DNA of 64,000 nucleotides from Dryomyza anilis (lineage: Eukaryota; Arthropoda; Insecta; Diptera; Dryomyzidae): the NCBI GenBank assembly GCA_951804985.1, contig OX638133.1, positions 3,554,501-3,618,500 on the forward strand, given 5' to 3'. The notes below the pieces were generated by a model. The model ran no database searches, was not told the DNA's origin, and saw nothing but the letters and a program-made list of their open reading frames with translations. Below are positions 46,396 to 61,075 of this stretch, piece after piece (positions within the stretch are counted from its first letter, which is position 1; each line of letters opens with the position of its first letter). The position numbers and the translations under genes were made by a program.

Positions 46396-47794
46396 TAATT
46401 TACTGAACGTCGAGATATTATTAAAATTCGTAAATACAAATCACTTGATGTGGAATCATACAAATTAGACATTTCTGGGTTTAAACACTTCGAGTTACTT
46501 TACCTATTTTATTAACTCTTGAATAGTTCAGTGTTACTGGATCTTTTATAAATGTTTCTTTAATTGATAGTGTTTTTTGCTAACTACATTTTTTGTATTG
46601 GCCTGTATGATGTGTATGTGAAAAGAAATTACTCGAAATAGTGTATCGTACGTTTCATATCTATGCGTAGTTTATATTACTTATATATTTATTTATATAG
46701 TAGGTATATTGTGCTTAGTTAAAATTCTGAAATATTTACATTAAGTGCTAACGTCTAAGAGTTATACAAAAATGTATTTTTACTTTATTCAAACTACCGA
46801 CAATAAGTACATAACTTGGACCATGAATTGACATATTTAAAAGCTAGTTGATAACTCAAAACAAAACAAATAGTAGCTAATTGATTAGTCTTAACATAAT
46901 TCTCTGAAACTTGAAGATATACATATTTGATATGAATACAATACATGTTTTTTTTATTAATTAAAACGGCGTATGCACCACATTCTCAAGTGTGCATACC
47001 TTTCTTATTACTCTATTCTAGTTAATGTATTATTTAGTAAAGCTTAAACCATTGGACCTTCGTTATATATCCAAAAAATTTGTATGTGTTAGTAAATTTA
47101 GGTAATCTTATAACATTAATTCACACGTTACGACTTGCTTAAAATACAGTTATTAATTTACTTCGTTAATTAATACAGTTAATAAAAAAATCGACATCAA
47201 GATATATATTATTCATCTGATATGGTAACTATAATTTTGCTCTTACTGTTTTCATTCAGTATGATATATAATTTATTCTATAATAAAAATCAGTAAAATA
47301 AGTAGATATGTTAAAAGGCATGCTAAATACACATTGAACAAAAGAGTTATAAAATCGTTGTGTTTACATTAAAATGATTTTTACATTAATTATATTAAAG
47401 CCTGAAAGTTATAAGATTTTAAAGCTGTATCGTTTTTATAATTTCAGTCAATTTTTGTTCGTTTGTGCAAATCCGAAACATTTAAAAAGAGGTTTGAAAC
47501 CAAGTATAGATGTTGATCTTTGAGAAAGTTCGAAATCGGGATGGTTATTTTGAAATTTTTGAAATATTTTCTTTTTAATTAGGTATATAAATCTGTCGCG
47601 GATAAAAAAACCACATATCAAAACTATTTTTCTCTCTATAGGTTTCAAGTTTTGTTTATCCACTTTGACCAACATTTCTGTGATCGGTCTATTTTTTTCT
47701 ACTATACTTGTTTAAAATAATTGACATCAATAGGTTATGGTACACAAATATGAAATAAAGGTTTCGTTTAAATAAATGTTTCGGATGCCATTTG

Positions 47795-50700
47795 TTACAA
47801 ACACTCAGAGGGCGGTGCTTCCTCATGCGGCGGTGAAGGACCTGAAACAGAAACCATTGGCAATGTATTTATTTTAGGTTTGGCCGATATTAATTTGAGC
47901 GCCTTGGGGCTGCTGTGCGGTGAAATGGTTGGTGATAGGCTACGATTTGTGGACGTCGACGAACCGCGGTGCACAAGGACGCGTGACTTTGTCTCTGTGG
48001 GAATCAGTATTAGTTCCTCCACGGTGTCGGTCGAGTCATGGGAAGCAGTTGATGCGGTGGTGTTCTGTGACTTAACATGTGCCTGAACCAGTTGCTTTTG
48101 CAGTTCAGTTGTAGAATGTGCCGCCGACAAAACCTCGCCTTTAAAGTACGCCGGCGGTGCCTCAATAGAAATACTGCCGACGACCATATTTGAGGTTGTG
48201 ACGGCCGCCGAACGACACGGAAAACTTAAATCCGTCGACTGTTGACCGTCAGCATTCGCATTCGCATTGAGCACCGAAAGAGTGCGTGTTTCGTTAGCTG
48301 ATCGGCATTGTTCGAGTTCGATCGCCGTGTCCTCGTTGTCGTGTTGTTCTCCGATGGCTTCTGAACTCTCATCGGTACGCCAACGTCGTTGTTTATTTGA
48401 AAAACTCTTCTGCTAAGAAAAACAAAGTCGATTAAATCATGTAGAAGAGGATATAGTAAAAATCGGTTTATGAACCTTTCTTTCGTTGTCGGTAATATTC
48501 TCCGCACTTTTGGCCTTGCGACAGAGCACACTTTGCGAACCATGTCTACGCAAAAACTCAATGGAGTCAAAACCTTTACCCTCGGACGACACAAAAATCG
48601 CAGAGTTTATGCGGCTCCGTGTGCAGCGCTCCGATATGGAAGTCGAGTGCTCCTCCTGCACCATATGAAAATGCTGAAAAGTAGAAGAGGTATTTTTAAA
48701 ATGTTTATATTACTCTACTCCTTAAAGTGCTAAAACTTACTCGGCTCTGATAATGCAACGGCTGGTAGGCAAGTGCGCCACATTCACTACCTTCAAACTG
48801 AAATGCGAAGTAGAATTTAGTAGGAATAACTTATATTCTATGCATTAGGGTGAAAAGCATCATGTTTTGATAAGAAGCATAAATATATTTACAGTAAACT
48901 ATATACAAAATTATTCGCATTGCATGTTGCCGTAGGCTTTTCGCACGGTTGGTATTTTGTGATTAAGTTTTGTACTTGGAATCGTTTAAATATTTAAAAT
49001 AACTCTACGGTATGCTAAGCGAAATTTCAGCTCCTTAAATATAGGTACTTTAGGTGTATTATTAATGAGATAAATGTACATAATATGAATGTGTCCTTGT
49101 GTGTGTATGTAATGTATATAATGTGCGCTTAAGATGTATGTTGGGTACACAAGACAATCTCGTAGATCTTACAAACATATATTTTATAGTAGGTAATTAT
49201 ACCCTTTATATTAAAAAAAATAATAAACATTTTTTAGACATTTTCTGTATAGTTCAGACGCAGGTTTATGTGACTCTGATTTAGTTTCTTTCTCAGAGAA
49301 TAACTTATTTATAATAGGTTTTATATAAATGGGTATTTGAATAAGCTCTCGTTGTTTTATAAAAGATGACGTTATCAGAACTACGTCTATTAAAAAAAAA
49401 TATTATAAATAAAAATAGCTTAAACTTCAGTGGAAGTTATTCCGTCGAAGTAAGTCAAAGGAAGTTAAATTTCGTGCCAAAAAAAAGAGTATTTGTGGGA
49501 ATACTCTTGAATAAGAGAATATTCTTGATGTAGACTCATATCAAACGCTAGCAGAACTTGCAGAATTATTAGGATTTGATCACACAACAGTTTCGAAACG
49601 TTCAGAAGGAAGCTGTTTAAACGGCAGAAAAAAAGGTGCTACGATAATCCCAATCGTTGAAAACATTGGGGGCAAAGCTGAATATTTATTGCTTGAAACT
49701 TCTTCTCTGCATTTGGTGGAATCTGCTGGGTGTACTTTATTGTGAGATGCTCGAACCGAACGGAACCATTCAGGAGATCGCTATCGACTACAATTGATGC
49801 CGAGCATTGACGAAAATGGACGGTATACGAGCAGAGACATGACCTAGTAATTTTGCACCCGCTGTATATCACACCCAAAGAACGAATCAGTTGGCGCAAC
49901 CGTATTTTTTTTGCCAACCGATTTATTTAGTTCTATCAACATTCGACTGATTCAGTTGTTGCAACACCGCGTATCAGTTCACACAACTAATGAATACAAT
50001 TGACACAACCAATTTGTTTAGTTGTGGTAGCCAATTTAATTATAAAAAATCGGCAATTTTACCTATCCCTAGCACTCCAACGTGTTGCAAACACGAAGTC
50101 AGCGTCACAACAGCGTTCCCGAGATCGAAAATTGCCGACGATTCGTGCTTGCAACACGTTGAAGCGCTAGGGCTGCATATAGAACTACAACGTATAGAAA
50201 CAAAATAGCAAGAACTCTGTAGAACAGTACGTCCGTTGTTGAAGAAAGTATATTTGGGCATGAAAAAACCGAACAGTAAAAACGAACAAGCTTAAAACAA
50301 TTCCAAATTTTGTTTAAGACGTGGCACGCGCTGTCCGCAGTACAAATAAAATGCGTGAAAAATCTAAAGCTTGCGCGACTGGTGCTGTCCTGCTTTAGCA
50401 TCGCTTTTATACAAGACAACTGATTTCGCAGTTGAATCAAATAAATATTGGTTGCTACAACCTAATATAATTAAATATCTATTAAGTCAACTAAATATTG
50501 GTTATGTCTCATGTTGAATTTAGTTGCCGTTGCAAAGGAAATAAAAAAAAAATGAAAATGGATAAAAAGTTTGTTTCCCCAATCAATGTTGCAGTTGCTT
50601 CAACTAATAGTTGGTTACCCTTGATACTATTTTGTACCACAAATGAATTTCAGTTGAGGTTGACTTAATTTGGTAGATGCAAATGAATATTCGTTGAAAC

Positions 50701-52434
50701 AACGCCTAGCAATTATTTTTTTGTGTGCACTTGTCCCGATCGATGACATGGTCTATCCATTCTTATGAAAATGTAAAAAAATGGCTCGACTTCTGGATAA
50801 AATTAATTTGAAAAAAATAAAATGCTGCCAGAAAAAAATCAGATAATAATTTTGGACATACTAGAAGTAAAGTAGTCGTGATAGTATTAGAAAATAATGT
50901 ATTATATAAATAATAGTTTGGCGCTACAGTCCTGCGAAGCACTTAGGTCCCACCACTTTGAGTGGTGGGACCTACAGTTTAATGCCGAATCCATCGGCGG
51001 AGTGAGAGCTTTTCATAGGCATTGTTTTAGGTTTGCCACTGACTGCCGAGAGTTAGCCTGAAAAATGTTTTCTATGAAAAGATGTTGACAGTCGCTGGAA
51101 TCGAACCCAGAACCTTTCGACTCGTAGTCCAACGCACTAAACAATCGAGCCACCGACGCTATTAAGAATACTTTGAGTAAATAATGAATACCGCAAACTG
51201 CTAATTAGATGACTGATTTACGTATCATCAAATGGAATTTACAATGTTATAACTTCGAAAAAAAGATCCGAAGTAATATGAAAAAAAATATTTGATTACA
51301 TGTAGAATTCGATGATGAAGGGTAACTGTACTATTTAATTAAATAATATAAAAAAAGAGTGCATTAGTGGTGCAAAACAATGAGTACAGATGATTTTGTT
51401 CTTAAAGGCAAAGAAGCGCTTCAGAGATGCTGCAAACAGATGAATATTTCAAAACTACAGAAAACCAGAACATAGTAGGTATTAAAATTCGAATTGTTCG
51501 AATGCGTGGTGATTCTAGTGGCAAATTTTACGGAGTGTTCAAAGATATGGTGCGGTGATGGTCTCCAGCAGTGACGTGTTGTAAATTACAAAAGCAGTCG
51601 TCCGACGGACAAGTACTGTGATGAATTTAACATTGTGGTGCATTGACTATGAACAAATTGACGTGGGTGAAAGGAGTCCAACGTTCGCATAGGATCGCAG
51701 AACGCACTTACACTTTGGTGCTCGTTTTGGATGTGATTGTTGTTGTTGTTATTGTAGATGTTATTGGGCGAAGAATCTGTGCAGATCGAATCGCTGGTTA
51801 TGGTGGCCTGTTTATATTTGCGCAATGACGAAGAGTCCCGACTCTCGCGTGAATCTTCACGACTACGTTCGGCACACGAGAACTGACGCCTATATTGTCG
51901 TCGTCGCCGAAATGCTCCAGGTCCATGTACGGTGCCGTGACCGGAGACCGGGTGTCCACCGAAGGACGTATAATCACTGCAAGACGGTTGACCGGCAATA
52001 GGTGGCGTGGGCCGATAATAACTGGGATCATAACTGAACTGACGACGACGCCACTGTTCGTACTGGCGGTAATGACTGAAGAGACGTCGACGGCGCAATA
52101 TTATCTGTTTCTTGGCCTCTATTTGCTCCAGCTCATCCGTGGTGTATGTCTGCTCCTGTGAGTTCTTTAGTATGCTGCGTTGTTGGGCAAACTTCTTCTG
52201 CTTCGTGCCCGACTCTAGTAATAATTTAGCTTTAAGCTGTTCATTAGATATGTGTTGCTCCTCTTCCGGAGTAGTAGTGTCCTCTTCATCGTCAACAATC
52301 AATACCTCGGCTTCGTCCATATTGTGCTGACGCGTCTGATGCTGTAGCGAAGTTGATGCAGCAGCGCTACAATCGGCACTGTCTGATTTACATTTACTCT
52401 CGGATGGTGCATCAACTTCACCGTGTGCTGGTTG
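47795..52434 (-). CDS. Candidate readthrough extension of the FnIII membrane protein (531 codons, four exons)
   Basis: After the TAG at 52437-52435 the same frame stays open to a donor at 51712 (AGT|GTAAGT) and continues through exons 48797-48741, 48673-48476 and 48412-47795, ending in TAA. Every junction is phase 0. Composition looks like a disordered cytoplasmic tail: acidic (EVLIVDDEEDTTTPEEE), Lys/Gln-rich helical (TDELEQIEAKKQIILRRRRL), Tyr/Arg/Pro-rich, Arg/Ser-rich (SREDSRESRDSSS), Asn-repeat, then Ser/Thr/Pro-rich near the C-terminus (SPTISPHSSPKALK). No catalytic domain is recognised. The donor at 48475 (AAG|GTTCAT) is weak. Alternatives: an independent protein starting at ATG 52320 (MDEAEVLIVDD), or a transcript that avoids the TAG by editing or splicing. 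If the last exons are not spliced in, the frame runs to a stop at 51586. Confidence 0.65.
49500..49605 (+). pseudogene. Mariner-like transposase remnant (helix-turn-helix part)
   Basis: The plus-strand frame from about 49529 reads DVDSYQTLAELAELLGFDH then TTVSKRSEG, resembling the second helix-turn-helix of mariner transposases (QTxxELAExLxVxxxTVSxRL). Upstream, the frame has a stop and a basic stretch RAKKKSICGN. No catalytic region is left. Confidence 0.45.
49871..50727 (-). mobile_element. 868-bp-type element, inverted copy (copy 2)
   Basis: Reverse-orientation copy of 4787-5654: it begins ACACCCAAAGAACGAATCA and ends ATTATTTTTTTGTGTGC. The internal hairpin is preserved (50070-50160), with several mismatches in the right arm. 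It is located in the intron between FnIII-gene exons 51712 and 48797. Confidence 0.7.
50911..51163 (-). mobile_element. tRNA-derived SINE with intact A- and B-box head
   Basis: Read on the minus strand from about 51161, the head has TGGCTCGATTGTTTAG (A-box-like) and, about 40 nt later, GGTTCGATTCC (a perfect B box), then the SINE body. The body contains an internal inverted pair GTCCCACCACTTT/AAGTGGTGGGAC. It is related to the truncated copy at 4246-4490. It lies inside an intron of the FnIII gene. Confidence 0.75.
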
Positions 52435-52437
52435 CTA
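52429..52437 (-). promoter_or_regulatory. Candidate programmed stop-codon readthrough site (TAG CAA CCA)
   Basis: On the minus strand the stop and the next six bases are TAG CAA CCA. This is an exact match to UAG-CAR-YYA, the type I leaky-stop context first defined for tobacco mosaic virus. It sits between two coding-like segments in one frame, with 40 codons of the same exon before it and 241 codons after it. A short GGTG...CACC stem can form about 12-28 nt downstream but is too small to weigh. Confidence 0.6.
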
Positions 52438-55400
52438 GCTCTCGACGTCGGCCTTGTGCAGCAATGCAAATTGACAGCCACAATCGCGTTCCAATTCGCG
52501 GCGAGGATACTGAAAGCAGCGGTCGAACAATCCGCAGCCCTCACAGCGGGGCAAACACTAAATTTGTAATGCATTATAACCAGGTTTGATATATCAAATA
52601 TGATTTTTGGTGAAAGGTCCTTATATTATTTTTACACGCATTAAATGAATAGAGCTAAATACGTCCCATGCTAGGAATTTGGTCCTCAAAGCATAAAGCA
52701 GGGATTGAAACCGTAAACGATATTCGTGAAATATTTTAGAGCCGAAAGCAAAACATTCATACAAAAAACAAAAAATGCGATAGAAACGGTTTCGGTTTTG
52801 TACCGATTAAAAAAAAATTAATAAAAATGCGAAAAATAAAGAGATACCTACAGTATAATTTTCACTACTACAAAAGAAAGTTGAATATTGTTCATTTTTT
52901 TTAAATTTCTATTTATTTATTATTCTGTAGTAAAACATTTCGTATATGGACCAAAAATAATATTAATAAAAATCGAAACCGAAACTGTAAGTTGCAACCG
53001 TTATAACGAAATCGATTCTCTATAAATTTTAAAATCAAAATCGTAACCGAATCCGAACCGAGTGATTTCGAAATCGTCAATCGTTTGTGTTTCAATCCTT
53101 GGTATAAAGCGAGGTGAAATTATTGAAACTTAACTTTCAAAGTTATTAAAATGTATAAAAACCATTAAGAATATTTTTTCATATATTGAATCAGAATAAA
53201 TATGTGTTTATGAAATTCAGATTAAGAGCTGGTTATGTCCTACTATATTAATCTCCATAATCGTTTTGTGTTTCTTCCATACGATTTGATACATGTAATT
53301 AAAATTTGTTATTAACTTGTTTTTAATATCGTCACTATCATGCCAAACGGGAAAATGTGTAATTTTAAACATTTGCGTTTTTTTTTCATTTTTGAATGTA
53401 GTTTTTCCTCAAGTATACTGTGCCAAAATTGTGTGCGGTTTTGTTGGATATTTCTGGCCACAAAAGACGAAACCTAAAGGGCGAATTCGAAAAATTGAAA
53501 TTGTTGTCATTCCAAAAGGGTGAATCTTTTCGTTTTTTTGCGATAACTTTTTATTGGTATAAGATAAAATAATAGAGTAAAGGCATTAATTGTTTGTTTT
53601 TAAAGCACCTAACGATTTGCATCGTTATTTTATCGATATTTTTTTGAATTTTTATCATTTGAAAGAAAAATGTTTGGCAAATTGTTTTTAAATAATGATG
53701 CCCATCGATAGCTGCTTTAAAAACAAACAATTACCATCAAACAATCACTATTTTATTTTGCACCATTAAAGAGTTATAGCAAAAAACGCAAAGATTCGCC
53801 TTTTTGGCATGACTAAATTTTCAATATTTCCAATTTCTTCAATTTTTGCTATAACTCTTTATTGGTATGAGATAAAATAGTGATGTGAAGGCATTAATTG
53901 TTTGTTTCTAAAGCACCTATCGATCATCACCATTATATAACATTTTTTTTTTGAATTTTTATCATTAGCAAGAAAATTTTTTGGCAAATTATTTTGAAAT
54001 AATGATGCCAATCGATAGCTGCTTTAATGCCTTCACATCACTATTTTATCTTGCACCATTAAAGAGTTATTGCAAAAAAAGGCAAAGATTCGCCCTTTTG
54101 GCATGACAAGATATTAAATTTTTCAAATGTCTTCATTTTTTGCTATAACTTTTTATTGGTGCAAGATAAAATAGTGGTGTAGAGGAACTAATTATTTGTT
54201 TTTAAAGCACCTATCGATTGGCATCATTATTTAAAAATATTTTTTTGATTTTTTATAATTTGCTAGAAAAATGTTTGGCAAATTATTTTTAAATAATGAT
54301 ACCAATTGAGCTGCTTTAAAAACAAATAATTAATGCCTTCACAACACTATTTTATCTTGCGCAAATAAAGAGCAAAAAAACATTGAAAAAATATTAAATT
54401 TTACTAATTTTTAAAGCACTTCAAACTTTAAAATTTGATTTCCCAATAATTTTAAAAATGCACATTCGCCCTTTAGGCATGATAGTGACGATATGATTTT
54501 AGTAAACTGTTATAAGTTAAGTTTTATTCCAACTGGGATGTATTTTGCATACAAAACGGAATTAATGACGGATAAAAATTTCCAAATAAAAAAAAAGACA
54601 AGTGCAAAACAATATAATGCAGAAAGCGAATGCTACAAGATAAATATTTGAAATGCCGGTATATGATTGATTGACTGATTAAGCAAACAATTTAATTTCG
54701 GAAATTTTATGTTTTTCGTATACGGGAATTATAAATCTTAGAAATTTAAGCATTTTTAGCAAGCTGAATTTTACGAATATGATCGAATGCAATACAAGAT
54801 AAGCTTGTGGAAAATTTGTAGATAGAAAGGTGCTTTTATGTTTATATTTTGTTTTTTTATTGAAAAAATGTGATTAAGCTGTTTTATAAGATGTTAATTA
54901 TATAATGTACCTTTACAAAAAGATCTGGGTGTAAATTCTATAAAATAAATGTAAATTTTTAATTAAAATATAGTCGTTTGCAATTTTGCCATTTTGATAT
55001 TTAATATATAGTATAAAATAGTGTTGGGCAAGAGTGAAACCATTTACTAAAATAAATATATGCAACTCTACTATTAGGTCTCATAATTTAACTTAAGTTC
55101 AAAATGGTAACAAATTAATATTTATTACATTCAATGTGACCCTATAATATACCATCAATATATAACTTTAAGAAAATAATCAAAATCCAAAACAAAATAG
55201 GTGCAAAATATTGCATTAATTGTTGCTTTTATAGTTGTAGTTGTCCTCGAAAATATTATATAATTTGGCCTGCATTTAACTATACTAATAGCAACGTTTA
55301 GAATTACCTGATGTGAGTGCTGTCCATTGCAAACGCCGCCGCTACAAACACCAGTGCCGGGTACTTTGAGCTGCTCATGCTTGTAATCCGGTTGATATGG

Positions 55401-58400
55401 AAGTAACATGCGAATTTTTCCCCAACGATTGAAAAATAGTGCTATTGCTCCTGCCCATACCATCAAGACAATTAACACAATGCCAATTTCTACGCCGCGT
55501 ATCTATAAACAAAATAAGTACCAAACGTTACATCTTAACTGACCTTTAGAATTGACCAAACATTGAGCATTTTACTCTGACCCTATGACATATGAAAGGA
55601 CGGTACAACTTACCGTAGGTAATTCTCTATGTGCACCATTAGCAAGATTATTCGTTGCGGTAGATGTTACATCATCTGAATATGTGCTGCCGTTCACTGT
55701 TTTACTAATGCTGCCGGAGAATAGTCCGGTACCACTCTGTAGATCCTGTTGCGACGAGGTTTTGGGCATATCTATGTGGAGTGCCAACTAAACAATATAC
55801 CTTCTTACTGACAATATAAGGTAGACGACTTACCCAAGGTTCTAAAAAATATCTGTCTACTGCGGTACTTTTTCCCAAGCCAAACGGCGGTCACAGCTAT
55901 GGAATACTGGGTGCTGGGTGAGAGGCGATCTAAAATGATGGCCTCACTATTACCTGCGACATCCTGTACAACCCTGTAACTTAAATTAATTAAATTAGTA
56001 TCTACTTTGAGCTAAAGTGCAAATAATATATCGTCGTCGTTCAGTGAAAAATCACTAAGTCCTAAAATTGAGTATAGAGATAAATGCTTTTAAAGATATA
56101 AATGATCGCAACAAATTAGAATATTTATACCCTACACCTATGAGGTACAGGGTATATTAACTTTGTGCATATATTGTAACGCCCATTAGGAGGCGTGTCC
56201 GGTATGGAAAAGTATATATATTCTTGATCAGCATCACTACCCGAGTCCGTTTAGCCATGTCCGTCTGTCTGTCTGTCTGTCCGTCTTGCTGTCTTGCTGT
56301 CCGAATACAGAATAACTTGAGAAATACTGATCAGAATGCGATAAAATTTCGTATTATTATATTTTAGCCAAAAGTAGGAACTGAGTTTGAAAATGAGCCA
56401 AATCGGTCAACGGACACGCCCACCTCCCAAAAAAGTCACTTCTATATAACTCTTTAGGAACTAATAACTCTAAAAGTATTCAAGATATAAGTATAAAATT
56501 TAAAACGTATTGTTATAATTCACCTAAAAATATGTGGTCAAAAAATGGCCGTGATCCGCCCACTTTTTTTTTCATTATTTCCCGGGTTTTCATAGTGAAA
56601 ATTTGATCCGTAAATTATTAAAATCAAATCTATGAAATATTAGCCTTTCAAAATTTTGGACACAACACATGACCGTTATTGGCTTCTTTTCTTTATCGTT
56701 CAGTGAAAAATCACTATTTCCCATTTAAACAGTAACCGTGCTCCAGTTTATCAAAATAATTGTATCGGAATTCAGTTTGAATTGGAGATGAAAGAACTGC
56801 ATATAATATCTGTCATTTAATCCAAAAATCGTTAAAATCCGACCGTTTTTGTGAACTCAGCACGGTTTTATTCAGATTTCGACGATTGCCATTCAGTGAA
56901 AAAATCACTAAGTCCCATATAAACAGTAACAGTGCTCCAGTTTATCCAAATAATTTCATCTGATTTTTGTTTAAATTAAAGATGAAAGAACTGCATAATA
57001 TCTATAATAATCGTTGAAATCCGACCATTTTTGTGAACTCGGTACCGTTTTAATCATATATCGGTGATTGCCGTTCAATAAAAAGTAACTAAGTCCCATA
57101 TAAAGAGTAACAGTGCTCCAGTTTATTCAAATAATTGTAAAAGATTTCAGTTTTAATTGGAGATAAAAGAACTGCATGACATCCGACCATTTTTGTGGAA
57201 TCATCACAGTTCTATTCAGATTTCGACGATTGCCGTTCTTTGAAAAATTTGACTTATTTTTTACGCCGCGATTATAGTATTTTTTGATAAGGAATGTCCA
57301 TGTAGATCTTCTTCTATAGTTTAAGTCCAAAATAGATTTGATCGGCCCCTTTTTAAGGGCTAATTGTGGACTTGAGTACTTTTCATTGAACTGAATTTTT
57401 CAATATTTGAAGTTAGAGATTTTTCATTTTTAATATCTTCGGTTTTGTAAGATGTAGAACTACGAGGACTTTTCCAACGTTTTTATTATAGTGGTATACT
57501 TATCTCGATATTTTCGAAAAATGGACTTAACGACTTTTCACTGAACGACGACGATATGTTAGTTAATAAGTTCGGATATTGTCGTCAATATATCTCTGTT
57601 AGTCACTCTCGCCTGTCGTAGCGGATATTTTTATTCGAATACGGCAGGCTCTGATTTGGAAGTTACATATCCGATCCGCATATCCGTTCCGAATAGCTAA
57701 ACATTCGTTTTCGTATAGAGTAGACTTGGATTGGGATTTTCACTATGGCGTACTTCAGAATAGGAATGATTGTATGTAATGAAATCTGTTGCAATTTGTT
57801 GAAATTTGGTAGGGGTTATTTTATATACTGATTAAGTCACTTTAAATTGCTTTAAACTAACCTACAACTGGAATGTTATTAACTATAGCAATGTTCTTGT
57901 CACGTTATTTAAAATACAGGGATAATGGCAGCAGGTGGTGCCAAACAATGACCTTAAGTTTGTTCACTAGTTGACGTTGTTCGACAACTAAGTTTTGGGT
58001 TACCCCAAAAACAAAACGCTGAAAGGTGGTTGGTTGATTGGTAGGTGTTCAGACAGATGGGGTTTCTTTGAACCCATACACTAAGCTAACCGCAAGAGAC
58101 TAACAAGCATAAAAATCAATCATTTTAGGGGAACAAAATAAACCAATTATATTCGTCTAGAATGCGACACCCTACAAAGGATATTATTGAATATTTAGAA
58201 TAAGTTTATAATATAACTTTTTATATAGTTAAGTGTTTGTTGAAAAATGGGGTTGGAAGAACAGCAGAGTTAGTTTTAACAGAAGAATTAGTTGTAACAG
58301 AAGAGTTAATTGTAACAGAAGAGTTAGCTGTAACAGAAGAGTGCCTGCCAATTGGTATAGGACACACTCAAAATTGTAAAAACTGTTTGATATTCGGCGT

Positions 58401-61075
58401 AGTTGAAACTACCATTCTTTAACTATTAGCTTTCATAACCGACTTAGAAGTTGAGAGAACCGAATTGGTAGCTTTTTCGACGTAACAAATATCTTATTGT
58501 GTTTATAGTTTATAGTTATATTATATTGTCTTATTGTCGACCTAAACTGACTCAAACTGTCTTAATGTCTGCTAATGCATGTGAGCTAAAAATCGATTTA
58601 AAAACGAACAATAAAAAAAATGTAATAAAGAAACTTCTCAACAGTTTAAAAATATCGTAGTAGGGACATTAACCATAAACTACAATAAACAAACAAACAA
58701 ACATAATCCATCAGGGTGGAGCGAACTCTAATAAAAAGCTACGAATAAAACTTTAGTACAAATAAAAATATTTACATAGTAATTTCTGCGATATTCATGA
58801 CTATGACATCTTTAGAAACTTTGACAAATATCTATGTATATCGATTCAAATTTTAGCTGCTTCACCTGCACCCAAATGCCTTCAAATGTTTTACCTAATA
58901 ATATACTTCCGTTTAATTATACTCCACACATAATCGTTTGTCTAGTGTTTTTCAAAATGTGTTTACAACAAATGCCGCAGATACAGACTACGACGACGAC
59001 GACAATCCAAAGTATGTCATGCGTTTACTCAGGGGACACCTAATAAAACACACCATCCCATCCGTCCTGAGGTAACACCAGACACCTTCAACCTTTATGC
59101 ATTCAATAGAGTGTGTGTTGGTTGTACCTACCGAGTTTTGGTGACAACATGGCACGCGCGATAGTAATGTAGAAATATTGTATTCTAATTGCGTTATTCA
59201 AGTCATTGTTGTGTATAAAAAATATTTATTAAAATTGGGAATTCTACATTTCATTAACATATTTTTCGATATTGCTTTAATTGATATAATAATGAACGAT
59301 ATAGAAAATACAAAATTTTGAACGCTGTAGAGCTAAAACACACCAATTAAATTTTAAAGTTTTTAATTATTGCTTTATGAGACATTTTTTGAATCTAAAA
59401 TTTTATAATTAAATAACTTTTAATTGTAGTTTTTCATTAAAGAAAATGTTTATGATTATGCTGTAGAATTATAATTAATATATATGGTGATTAATATATA
59501 TTTAATTAATTTGTGCAGAAATGTGTAACTAATTCTTAATATTTGTTAAACATTTTTGAATAAAAGTTTAGTTAATTAAAGTGGGTTTGTTCTTAATTAA
59601 TTCATTCTCACTTGAAAAGGTTACCGAATTTTTGGGGTGAAATAAGACAAATTTTTACTTGATAATTTTGAATAGATTTAGGGCCAGTTTTCCAGTGGTA
59701 GTTTAACTCCGTTTGTAGTTTAAACTTAGAATCGTGTTTTTCAGTGAACTTTAAACGTAGTTTAACCCACCGCTGCCATATTTTAAACACTGCTTTGAAT
59801 GAAACTTAAACTGCCACTGAAAAACTGCTCGAAAAGGTAAACTACGTGAGACGTTTAAGTAAACGTAGTTTAACTAAGTTTAAACTACCACTGAAAAACT
59901 GGCCTTAGAGAACGTCTCAAAAATTGTTCACGATACCAAGGGAGCAATTTTCGAAGGAAATTTTATTCATGACAGTGCTAAATATCAATCATACGACCTG
60001 TTTTTCGAATATTAGTGGTAGTTTAAACTAAGTTTAAACTACCACTGAAAAACTGGCCTTAAAGAACTTTTCAAACATTGTTCACGATACCAAGGGAGCA
60101 ATTTTCGAGGGATATTTTATTCACGACAGTGCTAAATATCACTCATACGACCTGTTTTTAGAATATTAGTGGTAGTTTAAACTAACTGTAAACTACCACT
60201 GAAAAACTGGTCCAAGATAACTTTCCAAACATTGTTCACCAAGGGAGCAATTTTCGAAGGAAATTTTATTCATGACAGTGCTAAATATCTAAAATAGTGA
60301 TAACTCATACGACCTGTTTTTAAAATATTAATTAAAATATTTTGCTTATTTCATTTCATTAGGTGGTAATTGCAAGGCAAAAGTTAAAAATTTGTATTAT
60401 TAATATAATTCAATCTATCATAAAAACTAATTATTTTATTTTTTTATTAATGAAATATTTTGAGTTTGATTATTTTTAACAAAAAAGTTATTATATGGAG
60501 TACATATCGTATGAGTGATATTACACCCAGCAAAAAATTCCCACAAATCCCATTAAAATTGGTCAATAGGACAATGATTGATTTAATAGTATACAAAAAA
60601 TAAATCTTTTCATATAAACTCAATGGCAATGTCATGGTATTTTCTAGTATTTAATGGTATTTTCCGATTAAAATACAAAGTTATCCTATTCTATTTATAG
60701 TATATTTTAATAATATATAGTATTTTTTCTTGGATGCAAAGTTGTATCGGACTGTAAAATAAACCATTTTATACAAGTATTATTCTATTACAATTTTTAT
60801 TTGGACATTGTCTTAATTTACGATAAGATAGCCCTTGGCTGTTCTCCGCTTTGTGAATATTAAGTAGTTCTCTATTCATTCAGTGTCGATACTATTAATG
60901 CTAATGTAGTGCAGTATTTTATTGGTAACATACCTGTCATCCGTCGGCTTATATGTAACAATGTATTTTTCAATGGGATGAGCATTGAGATCAATCATTG
61001 TCTGCCATGAAACACGTACTGTAGTGGGTGTTAAAAAAGTCACAGTGATGTTTTCGGGTGTTGCAGGAATAGTAC
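52435..61075 (-). CDS. Type I membrane protein with a fibronectin III domain, 3' exons up to the TAG stop
   Basis: Five phased exons are visible: 61075-60934, 55973-55834, 55771-55614, 55502-55308 and 52557-52435. The first two encode one FnIII domain (starts TIPATPENITVTF; includes TVRVSW, IEKYIVTYKP and LSPSTQYSIAVTAVW; ends FFRTL). A Ser/Thr-rich stem with an NGS sequon follows. Next is a single membrane helix (IGIVLIVLMVWAGAIALFF), then a basic juxtamembrane segment FNRWGKIRMLLPYQPDY and a Cys-rich cytoplasmic segment (VCSGGVC, then CLPRCEGCGLFDRC) ending KADVES before TAG. The acceptor for 55771 was chosen because the nearer TTTAG acceptor gives a frame with an early stop. Signal peptide and N-terminal exons lie beyond 61075 or off the window, so the gene is 5'-partial. 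I do not recognise the specific orthologue. The frame does not end here: see the extension entry. Confidence 0.75.
52558..55307 (-). other. Intron of the FnIII gene (TM exon to TAG exon)
   Basis: 2.75 kb; contains a scrap of the GGTTTCGATTTT-type degenerate repeat (52690-53090) and the foldback element at 53326-54494. The stretch 54500-55300 is AT-rich with nothing recognisable. Confidence 0.6.
53326..54494. mobile_element. 1.17 kb foldback element with tandem hairpin units
   Basis: Ends ATATCGTCACTATCATGCC and GGCATGATAGTGACGATAT are perfectly inverted. Inside, roughly three units of about 280 bp repeat. Each is itself a hairpin: ATAACTCTTTATTGGTAT-type left arm, GATAAAATAGTGATG, GCATTAATTGTTTGTTT and AAAGCACCTATCGAT, then the mirrored right arm GCTGCTTTAA...ATTTTATCTTGCACC. 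No transposase. In the large intron between exons 55308 and 52557. Confidence 0.8.
56038..57557. mobile_element. 1.5 kb element with ATATCGTCGTCGTTCAGTGA ends, internal 185-bp repeats and a nested mini-me
   Basis: The left end ATATCGTCGTCGTTCAGTGA is inverted at the right end (TCACTGAACGACGACGATAT). The interior has about three tandem units of about 185 bp (starting near 56699, 56890 and 57073) sharing AGTCCCATATAAACAGTAAC and GATGAAAGAACTGCAT. The mini-me copy D sits in its left part. Confidence 0.8.
56126..56660 (+). mobile_element. mini-me-like element, copy D, 3'-truncated and nested
   Basis: Closely matches copy A through GATCCGTAAATTATTAAAATC and then stops. It is inserted inside the repeat-bearing element at 56038-57557. 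Confidence 0.75.
58269..58340 (+). repeat. Four tandem 18-bp units (GTTAGTTGTAACAGAAGA)
   Basis: Four nearly identical 18-mers. Because 18 is a multiple of three they give a repeated LVVTEE in one frame, but the surrounding frame has no other coding sign and it lies in an intron. Confidence 0.8.
59692..59904. mobile_element. 213-bp MITE with GGCCAGTTTTCCAGTGGTAG ends
   Basis: GGCCAGTTTTCCAGTGGTAG at 59692 is inverted as CTACCACTGAAAAACTGGCC ending 59904 (one mismatch). The interior has further TTTAAAC/GTTTAAA words. Confidence 0.8.
59870..60330 (+). repeat. About 150-bp tandem repeat, three units, seeded from the MITE end
   Basis: Each unit contains ACTACCACTGAAAAACTGG, TTGTTCACGATACCAAGGG (shortened in the third), AGCAATTTTCGA, GACAGTGCTAAATATC and CATACGACCTGTTTTT. 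Units start near 59880, 60028 and 60177. Confidence 0.75.
60522..60737 (+). mobile_element. MITE, TACACCCAG family (copy 3)
   Basis: Same orientation as 4011-4226, inside an intron (or the 3' flank of an exon) of the FnIII gene. It contains GGTCAATAGGACAATGATTG and CATGGTATTTTCTAG, and ends near TTTTTTCTTGGATG. Confidence 0.7.

What the first reader, a model, noticed from the sequence alone, without database searches (positions are those of the whole stretch)
47795..52557. Candidate programmed stop-codon readthrough adding about 531 residues to an FnIII membrane protein
Seen: the exon 52557-51712 carries one in-frame TAG (52435-52437); the 40 codons before it and 241 after it are open in the same frame. 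Three further exons (48797-48741, 48673-48476, 48412-47795) join at phase 0 and stay open to TAA. The nine bases TAG CAA CCA match the UAG-CAR-YYA type I readthrough context exactly. Known: type I contexts are leaky, and stop readthrough is common in Drosophila. Inference: most protein ends at KADVES and a fraction continues into a large disordered, charged cytoplasmic tail. Rivals: A-to-I editing of UAG to a Trp codon, rare use of the TAG as a splice acceptor (purine-rich upstream, so poor), or a separate ORF from ATG 52320.
Basis: partly seen in the sequence, partly recalled or inferred. Interest (0 to 1): 0.92.

Follow-up and report, generated by a model that had tools for sequence, protein, structure and literature searches.

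The report
Leaky stop codon in fly irisin-like gene
A fly relative of the mammalian irisin-precursor gene has one in-frame stop codon in the middle of a long coding exon, probably read through some of the time to add a 531-residue tail; the same idea was already in print for the fruit-fly version, and splicing around the stop is a serious rival.

Summary
Exon 52557-51712 (minus strand) carries one in-frame TAG (52437-52435), in the context TAG-CAA-CCA. Splice phases fit: 267 residues to the TAG, 531 more to the TAA. The gene is the fly FNDC5/irisin-precursor homologue, Iditarod (CG33143) in Drosophila.

Added here: post-stop Gln-Pro recurs in Drosophila and Glossina models; a predicted 15-bp stem starts 12 nt after the stop (16 of 2000 shuffles as stable; not significant in a longer fold); the first 66 post-stop codons look coding (0 of 286 null windows).

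Against: gene models of relatives also reach the tail by splicing past the TAG, and two in-frame acceptor-like sites here (52341, 52236) would allow it. The first 33 post-stop codons are weakly coding-like. No RNA or ribosome data were available. Readthrough is likely, unproven.

The parts
60934..61075 (-). FnIII exon 1 (first coding exon in the window; the signal-peptide exon starts at window-equivalent 64106, outside)
   Evidence: fn3 match; phases fit; start exon found in flanking DNA
55834..55973 (-). FnIII exon 2
   Evidence: phase and GT/AG; homologues
55614..55771 (-). extracellular linker exon
   Evidence: phase and GT/AG
55308..55502 (-). transmembrane / DUF4808 exon, ends ...NGQHSHQ at phase 0; branch point of the isoforms in relatives
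   Evidence: PF16066 E 3.6e-26; homologues
54911..54937 (-).
   Evidence: same or similar cassette in 9 of 256 fetched homologues
52438..52557 (-). 40-codon Cys-rich tail before the stop (CLPRCEGC...FALLHKADVES); 39 of 40 residues as in the D. suzukii short isoform (compared by eye)
52435..52437 (-). in-frame TAG stop codon (candidate readthrough codon)
52429..52434 (-). CAACCA, fits the CARYYA (type I) context
   Evidence: motif definition from PMC3542737
52346..52422 (-). predicted stem-loop: 15-bp stem 52422-52408 with 52360-52346 (12 perfect Watson-Crick pairs, 52419-52408 with 52360-52349), starting 12 nt after the TAG
51712..52434 (-). first 241 codons of the extension (same exon as the TAG), with the conserved block ILRRRRLFSHYRQYEQWRRRQFSYDP
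52341..52342 (-). CTACAG|CAT: in-frame (phase 0) acceptor-like site 93 nt past the TAG; its upstream tract overlaps the 3' arm of the stem (splicing rival)
   Evidence: score 1.70, within the range of the real acceptors
52236..52237 (-). GAACAG|CTT: in-frame acceptor-like site 198 nt past the TAG, near where the B. dorsalis X2 model enters as judged by eye (splicing rival)
   Evidence: score 4.73; P0002 joins FVK|SKSK
48741..48797 (-). extension exon 2 (FEGSECGALAYQPLHYQSR)
   Evidence: homologues
48476..48673 (-). extension exon 3 (conserved RINSAIFVSSEG...AKSAENITDN)
47795..48412 (-). last extension exon to TAA

Best explanation
The gene is the fly FNDC5/irisin-precursor homologue (Iditarod, CG33143 in Drosophila), a membrane protein with one FnIII domain. 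The transcript that includes exon 52557-51712 encodes two products. Most ribosomes stop at the UAG and make a 267-residue form with a short Cys-rich cytoplasmic tail. A fraction decode UAG with a near-cognate tRNA, helped by CAACCA and perhaps by the stem-loop that starts 12 nt further on, and continue in frame for 531 residues. Shown here: the frame, the exon phases, the conserved short end, the homology of the extension and the context. Predicted: the stem. Inferred: that ribosomes pass the UAG, how often, and that the stem matters. Other spliced forms of the same gene probably carry the last three exons without any readthrough.
For: Frame and splice phases fit from ATG to TAA with one internal stop. 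The extension query has one match in the genome, itself. The short end is real and old: D. suzukii X7 ends in the same KADVES; of 256 fetched proteins 21 hold C[QR]FALLH, and 18 end within 10 residues after it, the named ones being D. suzukii, two midges, four beetles, a moth, a gall wasp, a bee, a locust, a thrips, a planthopper and a mealybug; 4 are unnamed. Mudge 2019 legend: a coding-signature region next to the transcript F exon suggests an exon that includes an in-frame TAG, perfectly conserved and followed by C (I did not see the alignment). Post-stop Gln-Pro recurs in D. rhopaloa QPAHRE, D. immigrans and D. palustris QPVHR and Glossina QPTRV models, as CAR-CCN would give. CARYYA stimulates readthrough (PMC3542737, PMC4132726). 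dfr/vvl has UAG-CAA-UCA plus a stem from about +9. The stem here: 1 of 200 shuffles of 103 nt and 16 of 2000 of 90 nt as stable. Codon score of the 66 codons from TAG to 52237: 0.43; 0 of 286 overlapping null windows reach it. The TAG is a poor acceptor: -3.71, against a leave-one-out minimum of -1.16 for 9 real ones.
Against: Splicing past the TAG is seen in models of relatives: P0006, P0011, P0012 (another exon into a site after the TAG) and P0002 (FVK|SKSK). Acceptor-like phase-0 sites exist here at 52341 and 52236. The first 33 post-stop codons score 0.29 in frame and 0.36 in frame +1; 55 of 1951 null windows reach 0.29. The score is a blunt tool: the real transmembrane exon scores only 0.14 (the same in frame +1), and exon 48797-48741 scores higher in the two wrong frames. 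The residues just after the stop diverge quickly: five models read VPHRE (P0005, P0007-P0010), so YYA is probably not kept everywhere. The stem: in a 273-nt fold that also contains it the whole is no better than shuffles (z -0.71, 43 of 200); it ranks only 8th by z of 253 windows, and 24 stems of 12 or more perfect pairs occur on this strand of the window; it starts at +16, while shifting the dfr stem by 3 nt already lowered readthrough. No DNA of relatives was reachable, so conservation of the TAG, of the C after it and of the stem was not tested by me.
Confidence: 0.55

Rival explanations
1. Alternative splicing alone. The TAG is an ordinary terminator of the short isoform. The extension is coding because other transcripts enter the exon downstream of the TAG (52341 or 52236 here), with or without the 27-nt cassette exon, or skip the exon altogether. 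Nothing reads through.
For: Models of relatives: P0002, P0006, P0011, P0012 enter after the TAG; 61 of 120 listed homologues skip the exon, by motif. Acceptor-like sites in phase 0 here. The cassette exon is present at phase 0. The first 33 post-stop codons are weakly coding-like.
Against: The 66 codons between TAG and 52236 are coding-like as a whole (0 of 286 overlapping null windows), though 52341 could explain the second half. The Drosophila legend reports an invariant TAG followed by C inside the coding exon it infers (PMC6886504). Post-stop Gln-Pro recurs in models from two fly families besides this fly.
Confidence: 0.28
2. The TAG is itself a 3' splice acceptor (AG|CAACCA): HSHQ joins QPAHGEV and the stop is removed as intron.
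For: Five gene models read HSHQ|QP (P0004, P0013, P0015, P0016, P0020), as this would give; two Anopheles models read HSHQ|HPG (P0094, P0100). Their DNA was not seen, so the bases before the join are unknown.
Against: Purine-rich upstream; score -3.71, below the leave-one-out scores of all 9 real acceptors of this gene; 74% of the 2804 AGs on this strand score as well or better; rank 17 of 34 AGs at the start of the exon. Gene finders avoid in-frame stops, so such models are expected without RNA support (general knowledge).
Confidence: 0.05
3. A small intron inside the exon (GAC|GTCGAG... to 52341, about 105 nt) removes the TAG in some transcripts.
For: D. willistoni model P0241 reads HKAD|HQHQHGTP; the same cut here would read HKAD|HQTRQHN.
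Against: The donor GAC|GTCGAG is unlike the 8 donors of this gene. Models that join the two sides differ between species (P0001, P0003, P0074, P0241), as evasions of a stop would.
Confidence: 0.03
4. A separate downstream ORF is translated from ATG 52320 (dicistronic mRNA or another promoter).
For: The ATG has A at -3 and G at +4. Models that start after the stop exist in relatives (P0079-P0082, P0095, P0096, P0102). D. gunungcola P0080 starts, and D. rhopaloa P0020 has a Met, 40 and 39 residues before the anchor, where ours lies at 39.
Against: 16 ATGs, the start codon included, precede the TAG in the reading path. 9 of 19 models have no Met at all between junction and anchor. In the 17 of 23 start-after-stop proteins that could be measured the first Met lies 1 to 124 residues from the anchor. 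The product would lose signal peptide and membrane anchor.
Confidence: 0.05
5. A-to-I editing turns UAG into UGG (Trp).
For: UAG is a favourable ADAR neighbourhood (recalled, no call). In the 273-nt fold the A of the TAG (52436) is paired, in a short interrupted hairpin with 52460-52464 and its neighbours.
Against: That hairpin is short, and the 15-bp stem lies 3' of the TAG without it. Not testable without RNA.
Confidence: 0.03

Closest known systems
Readthrough candidate in D. melanogaster CG33143/Iditarod (Mudge et al. 2019, PMC6886504, Fig. 4B legend; passages seen)
   Same: Orthologous gene, an exon with an in-frame TAG followed by C, same proposal; the position fits (173 nt = 120 + 3 + 50, my arithmetic)
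   Different: There it rests on Drosophila alignments without transcript data; here another fly, with exact TAG-CAA-CCA, a predicted stem, a 531-residue extension over four exons, and explicit splicing rivals
Programmed readthrough of Drosophila dfr/vvl (PMC13170385; outline, passages and sections 15, 19, 22 seen)
   Same: UAG, CAA-YCA at +4 to +9, stem-loop just 3' of the stop
   Different: dfr is intronless, its stem starts at about +9 to +12 and is conserved; here the main stem starts at +16, spans 77 nt with a large inner loop, its conservation is untested, and introns follow the stop
Abundant readthrough in Drosophila and Anopheles (PMC5100048; abstract, section 3 part 1, section 9 and passages seen)
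   Same: In-frame coding extension after a stop reported as conserved in Drosophila; TAG commoner among structured Drosophila candidates there
   Different: Their criteria ask for coding signal between the stop and a downstream acceptor; here that interval gives a mixed single-genome signal
Type I UAG-CAR-YYA readthrough of tobamoviruses (PMC3542737, passages seen)
   Same: Stop and six following bases fit the motif
   Different: A viral replicase; here a cellular membrane protein with alternative splicing

Membership tests
FNDC5/irisin-precursor homologue (Iditarod) | Signal peptide, one FnIII domain, one TM, cytoplasmic part (DUF4808 as the Pfam mark) | tested here: met
   fn3 E 5e-13, DUF4808 E 3.6e-26; start exon with a hydrophobic N-terminus; D. 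suzukii X7 81% identical over 100% of the query; the name Iditarod = CG33143 from PMC10523451. The link from our protein to CG33143 rests on fly homologues and the papers, not on a direct accession match. TM and signal peptide were judged by eye.
Conserved stop-codon readthrough (Jungreis criteria) | Long in-frame coding ORF after the stop | tested here: met
   531 residues, homologues
Conserved stop-codon readthrough (Jungreis criteria) | Same stop codon in related species | not testable with these tools
   No DNA of relatives reachable; PMC6886504 states perfect conservation in Drosophila
Conserved stop-codon readthrough (Jungreis criteria) | Coding constraint between the stop and any downstream acceptor or ATG | tested here: inconclusive
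   66-codon interval coding-like, first 33 codons weak; no substitution test possible
Type I readthrough context | UAG-CAR-YYA | tested here: met
   TAG-CAA-CCA
Stem-loop-facilitated readthrough (strict definition of PMC13170385) | Hairpin of at least 35 nt within 60-80 nt of the stop, loop 3-10 nt, bulges at most 2 nt | tested here: not met
   By inspection of the folds: the stem closes a large inner loop and extends past +80; their script was not run
Stop-codon readthrough | Ribosome footprints or peptide past the stop | not testable with these tools
   No such data at hand

The most novel reading that the evidence does not exclude
The stem-loop after the TAG is a two-way switch: its 3' arm is the upstream tract of the in-frame acceptor-like site at 52341, so one RNA structure would both promote readthrough of the UAG in the spliced mRNA and hide the splice site that bypasses the UAG in the pre-mRNA, setting the ratio of short and long irisin-precursor tails.
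Probability: 0.08. Interest if true: 0.65.

Novelty: already known. Interest (0 to 1): 0.36.

Why it matters
If real, a fly irisin precursor is made with two very different cytoplasmic tails, and the choice is set partly during translation. The short tail is old in insects, and the gene affects exercise performance and autophagy in flies (PMC10523451; abstract start in the listing and passages seen), so a leaky stop would be a testable control point. The case also shows that long readthrough tails need a splicing control: the same residues can be reached by routes that avoid the stop.

Tried and rejected
DNA of relatives: genome contigs and viral-contig scans found no relative, and the window's genome has no relatives to search. 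So no test of synonymous substitution, TAG conservation or covariation of the stem was possible.

Rfam on 47500-53000 (E up to 0.1) and tRNA on the window (bacterial code): nothing. Motif searches for the Drosophila YNHYFLFNPC exon in the intron gave no convincing copy. The solved-structure search gave 15 sequences, by their names FnIII-type proteins. The Abhydrolase_4 hit on the extension (below its cut-off) was taken as chance. Anopheles models P0085, P0094 and P0100 have a different exon at the same junction; its relation to this extension is unsettled.

Papers: 'readthrough' and 'stop codon' occur 0 times in the main text of the Iditarod paper and of the 2025 irisin review PMC11853655. CG33143 gave 8 papers (7 listed); I opened three (PMC6886504, PMC10523451, PMC11952656), and in the passages that I saw only PMC6886504 speaks of readthrough of this gene; the others were not opened. 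AGAP006721 gave none. Of PMC3840789 I saw outline and abstract only.

Limits: homologue lists were capped (best 120 of 225, of 282; all 42), so counts of k in 256 or 120 are of what was listed. The null windows overlap and come from noncoding DNA of other composition, so 0 of 286 is not a p-value. The acceptor matrix rests on 9 sites of this one gene. In one search the site CTACAG was also scored one base off (52342, -11.43); the correct row is 52341, 1.70.
Full report
The observation. On the minus strand the exon 52557-51712 holds one in-frame stop, TAG at 52437-52435, with 40 open codons before and 241 after it. The other two sense frames hold 6 and 21 stops, and 241 open codons have a chance of about 8e-6 at this base composition. 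Upstream, two FnIII exons, a linker exon and one transmembrane exon also join cleanly, and the start exon lies just outside the window, at window-equivalent 64106. The product is 267 residues to the TAG and 531 more after it. A genome search with the first 241 residues of the extension gave one match, itself, among 7 candidates.

What the gene is. The short form matches DUF4808 (E 3.6e-26) and fn3 (E 5e-13), and insect proteins of which several are named FNDC4 or FNDC5. The Drosophila gene is CG33143, renamed Iditarod, the FNDC5/irisin-precursor homologue (PMC10523451, passages seen). I reached this identity through fly homologues and the papers, not through a direct accession match.

The short end is real and old. 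D. suzukii isoform X7 (P0121, a cluster of 11 sequences) ends in the same residues, FALLHKADVES. Of the 256 proteins listed in three searches, 21 hold C[QR]FALLH; 18 of these end within 10 residues (D. suzukii, two midges, four beetles, a moth, a gall wasp, a bee, a locust, a thrips, a planthopper, a mealybug and 4 unnamed) and 3 continue (P0003, P0074, P0241). An assembly error at the TAG is therefore unlikely: it ends an ancient tail.

The extension is coding in flies. Of the 256 proteins, 42 hold the block around LFSHYRQ; 18 have the membrane part and 24 do not. The 18, and P0241, join the two sides in different ways: HSHQ to QP (P0004, P0013, P0015, P0016, P0020), HSHQ to VPHRE (P0005, P0007-P0010), another exon into a site after the stop (P0006, P0011, P0012; P0014 is a low-quality model that mixes routes), cassette exon to SKSK (P0002), HRAD to QPTRV (P0074), HKAD to HQHQH (P0241), HK to VADGYRR (P0003) and a cut in the tail (P0001). 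Many of these look like ways in which gene finders avoid an in-frame stop (inference). The routes of P0002, P0006, P0011 and P0012 come from numbered isoform sets and may rest on RNA, which I could not check. The Glossina gap of four residues (VES plus the stop, if spacing is as here) would be too small for an intron. Post-stop Gln-Pro in Drosophila, Glossina and this fly is what CAR-CCN would give; the VPHRE models suggest that the exact motif is not kept everywhere.

Prior art. Mudge et al. 2019 (PMC6886504, passages seen) say in the Fig. 4B legend that a candidate coding region just 5' of an exon of CG33143 transcript F suggests an exon 173 nt longer, which includes an in-frame TAG that is perfectly conserved and followed by C, and suggest readthrough; they used no transcript data. 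With 120 nt plus the TAG before it, this places the transcript F acceptor 50 nt after the TAG (my arithmetic, assuming the same tail length). The proposal is therefore not new for the gene.

Mechanism. TAG-CAA-CCA fits UAG-CAR-YYA, described for tobamoviruses (PMC3542737); in a reporter CARYYA gave about 15% readthrough, very similar with UGA and UAG (PMC4132726). The nearest worked case is dfr/vvl: UAG, CAA-UCA and a stem-loop from about +9, where the six bases after the stop and the stem each matter and Gln is inserted (PMC13170385). Here a predicted 15-bp stem with 12 perfect pairs starts 12 nt after the TAG. Alone it folds better than all but 1 of 200 or 16 of 2000 dinucleotide shuffles. 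Against it: in a 273-nt fold that keeps the stem the whole is ordinary (z -0.71, 43 of 200 shuffles); it ranks 8th by z and 10th by energy of 253 windows along the coding sequence; 24 stems of 12 or more perfect pairs with loops up to 90 occur on this strand of the window, though no other in the exons of this gene; it starts further from the stop than in dfr, where a 3-nt shift already hurt; and it fails that paper's strict hairpin definition by inspection. It is a lead, not proof.

Test of the part that only readthrough explains. In-frame acceptor-like sites lie 93 and 198 nt after the TAG (52341 and 52236). The 66 codons up to the second score 0.43 on a codon table trained on 2429 codons of other ORFs in the window; 0 of 286 stop-free noncoding windows score as high. 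Split in two, the first 33 codons score 0.29 (55 of 1951 null windows as high; frame +1 scores 0.36) and the next 33 score 0.58 (12 of 1951). The other exon stretches of this gene that I scored give 0.14 to 0.64, and two of them (the transmembrane exon, a tie, and 48797-48741) do not score best in their own frame, so the test is blunt. The stretch up to 52236 looks translated, but the stretch up to 52341 is not settled, and splicing into 52341 remains open.

Other rivals. The TAG as acceptor scores -3.71, below all nine real acceptors of this gene when each is left out in turn (minimum -1.16), and 74% of the 2804 AGs on this strand score as well or better. A separate ORF is unlikely but not excluded: 16 ATGs, the start codon included, precede the TAG, and 9 of 19 models have no Met between junction and anchor, but D. 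rhopaloa and D. gunungcola have a Met within a residue of the place of ours. Editing could not be tested; the A of the TAG is paired only in a short hairpin.

Splicing matters in any case. 61 of the 120 homologues listed skip the TAG exon and join HSHQ, directly or through the cassette exon, to later exons (by motif). The same joins are in phase here, so forms with the last 290 residues and no readthrough are expected.

Verdict. Observation confirmed; readthrough likely (0.55) but unproven and already proposed for the orthologue; splicing past the stop is the main rival (0.28).

Noticed in passing
54937-54911 (minus strand): 27-nt cassette exon NLHPDLFVK between consensus-like splice sites, phase 0; same or similar in 9 of 256 fetched homologues.
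   Followed up: yes
52557-52438 (minus strand): The Cys-rich 40-residue tail ending FALLH is kept from bugs to flies, while the residues after the stop diverge quickly; I saw no description of its function in the papers opened.
   Followed up: partly
51160-51090 (minus strand, in the intron after 51712): A stretch that looks like a tRNA-derived short repeat (box-like motifs, recalled); ARAGORN with the bacterial code did not call it.
   Followed up: no
50161-50078 and 5463-5347: Two inverted-repeat elements sharing the CAACGTGTTGC core (13-bp and 34-bp stems), probably copies of one mobile-element family.
   Followed up: no
P0085, P0094, P0100 (Anopheles): Anopheles gene models have a long His-rich exon at the same junction (HSHQ|HPG or HSHQ|DAAA), perhaps the mosquito counterpart of this extension; whether a stop precedes it is unknown.
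   Followed up: partly
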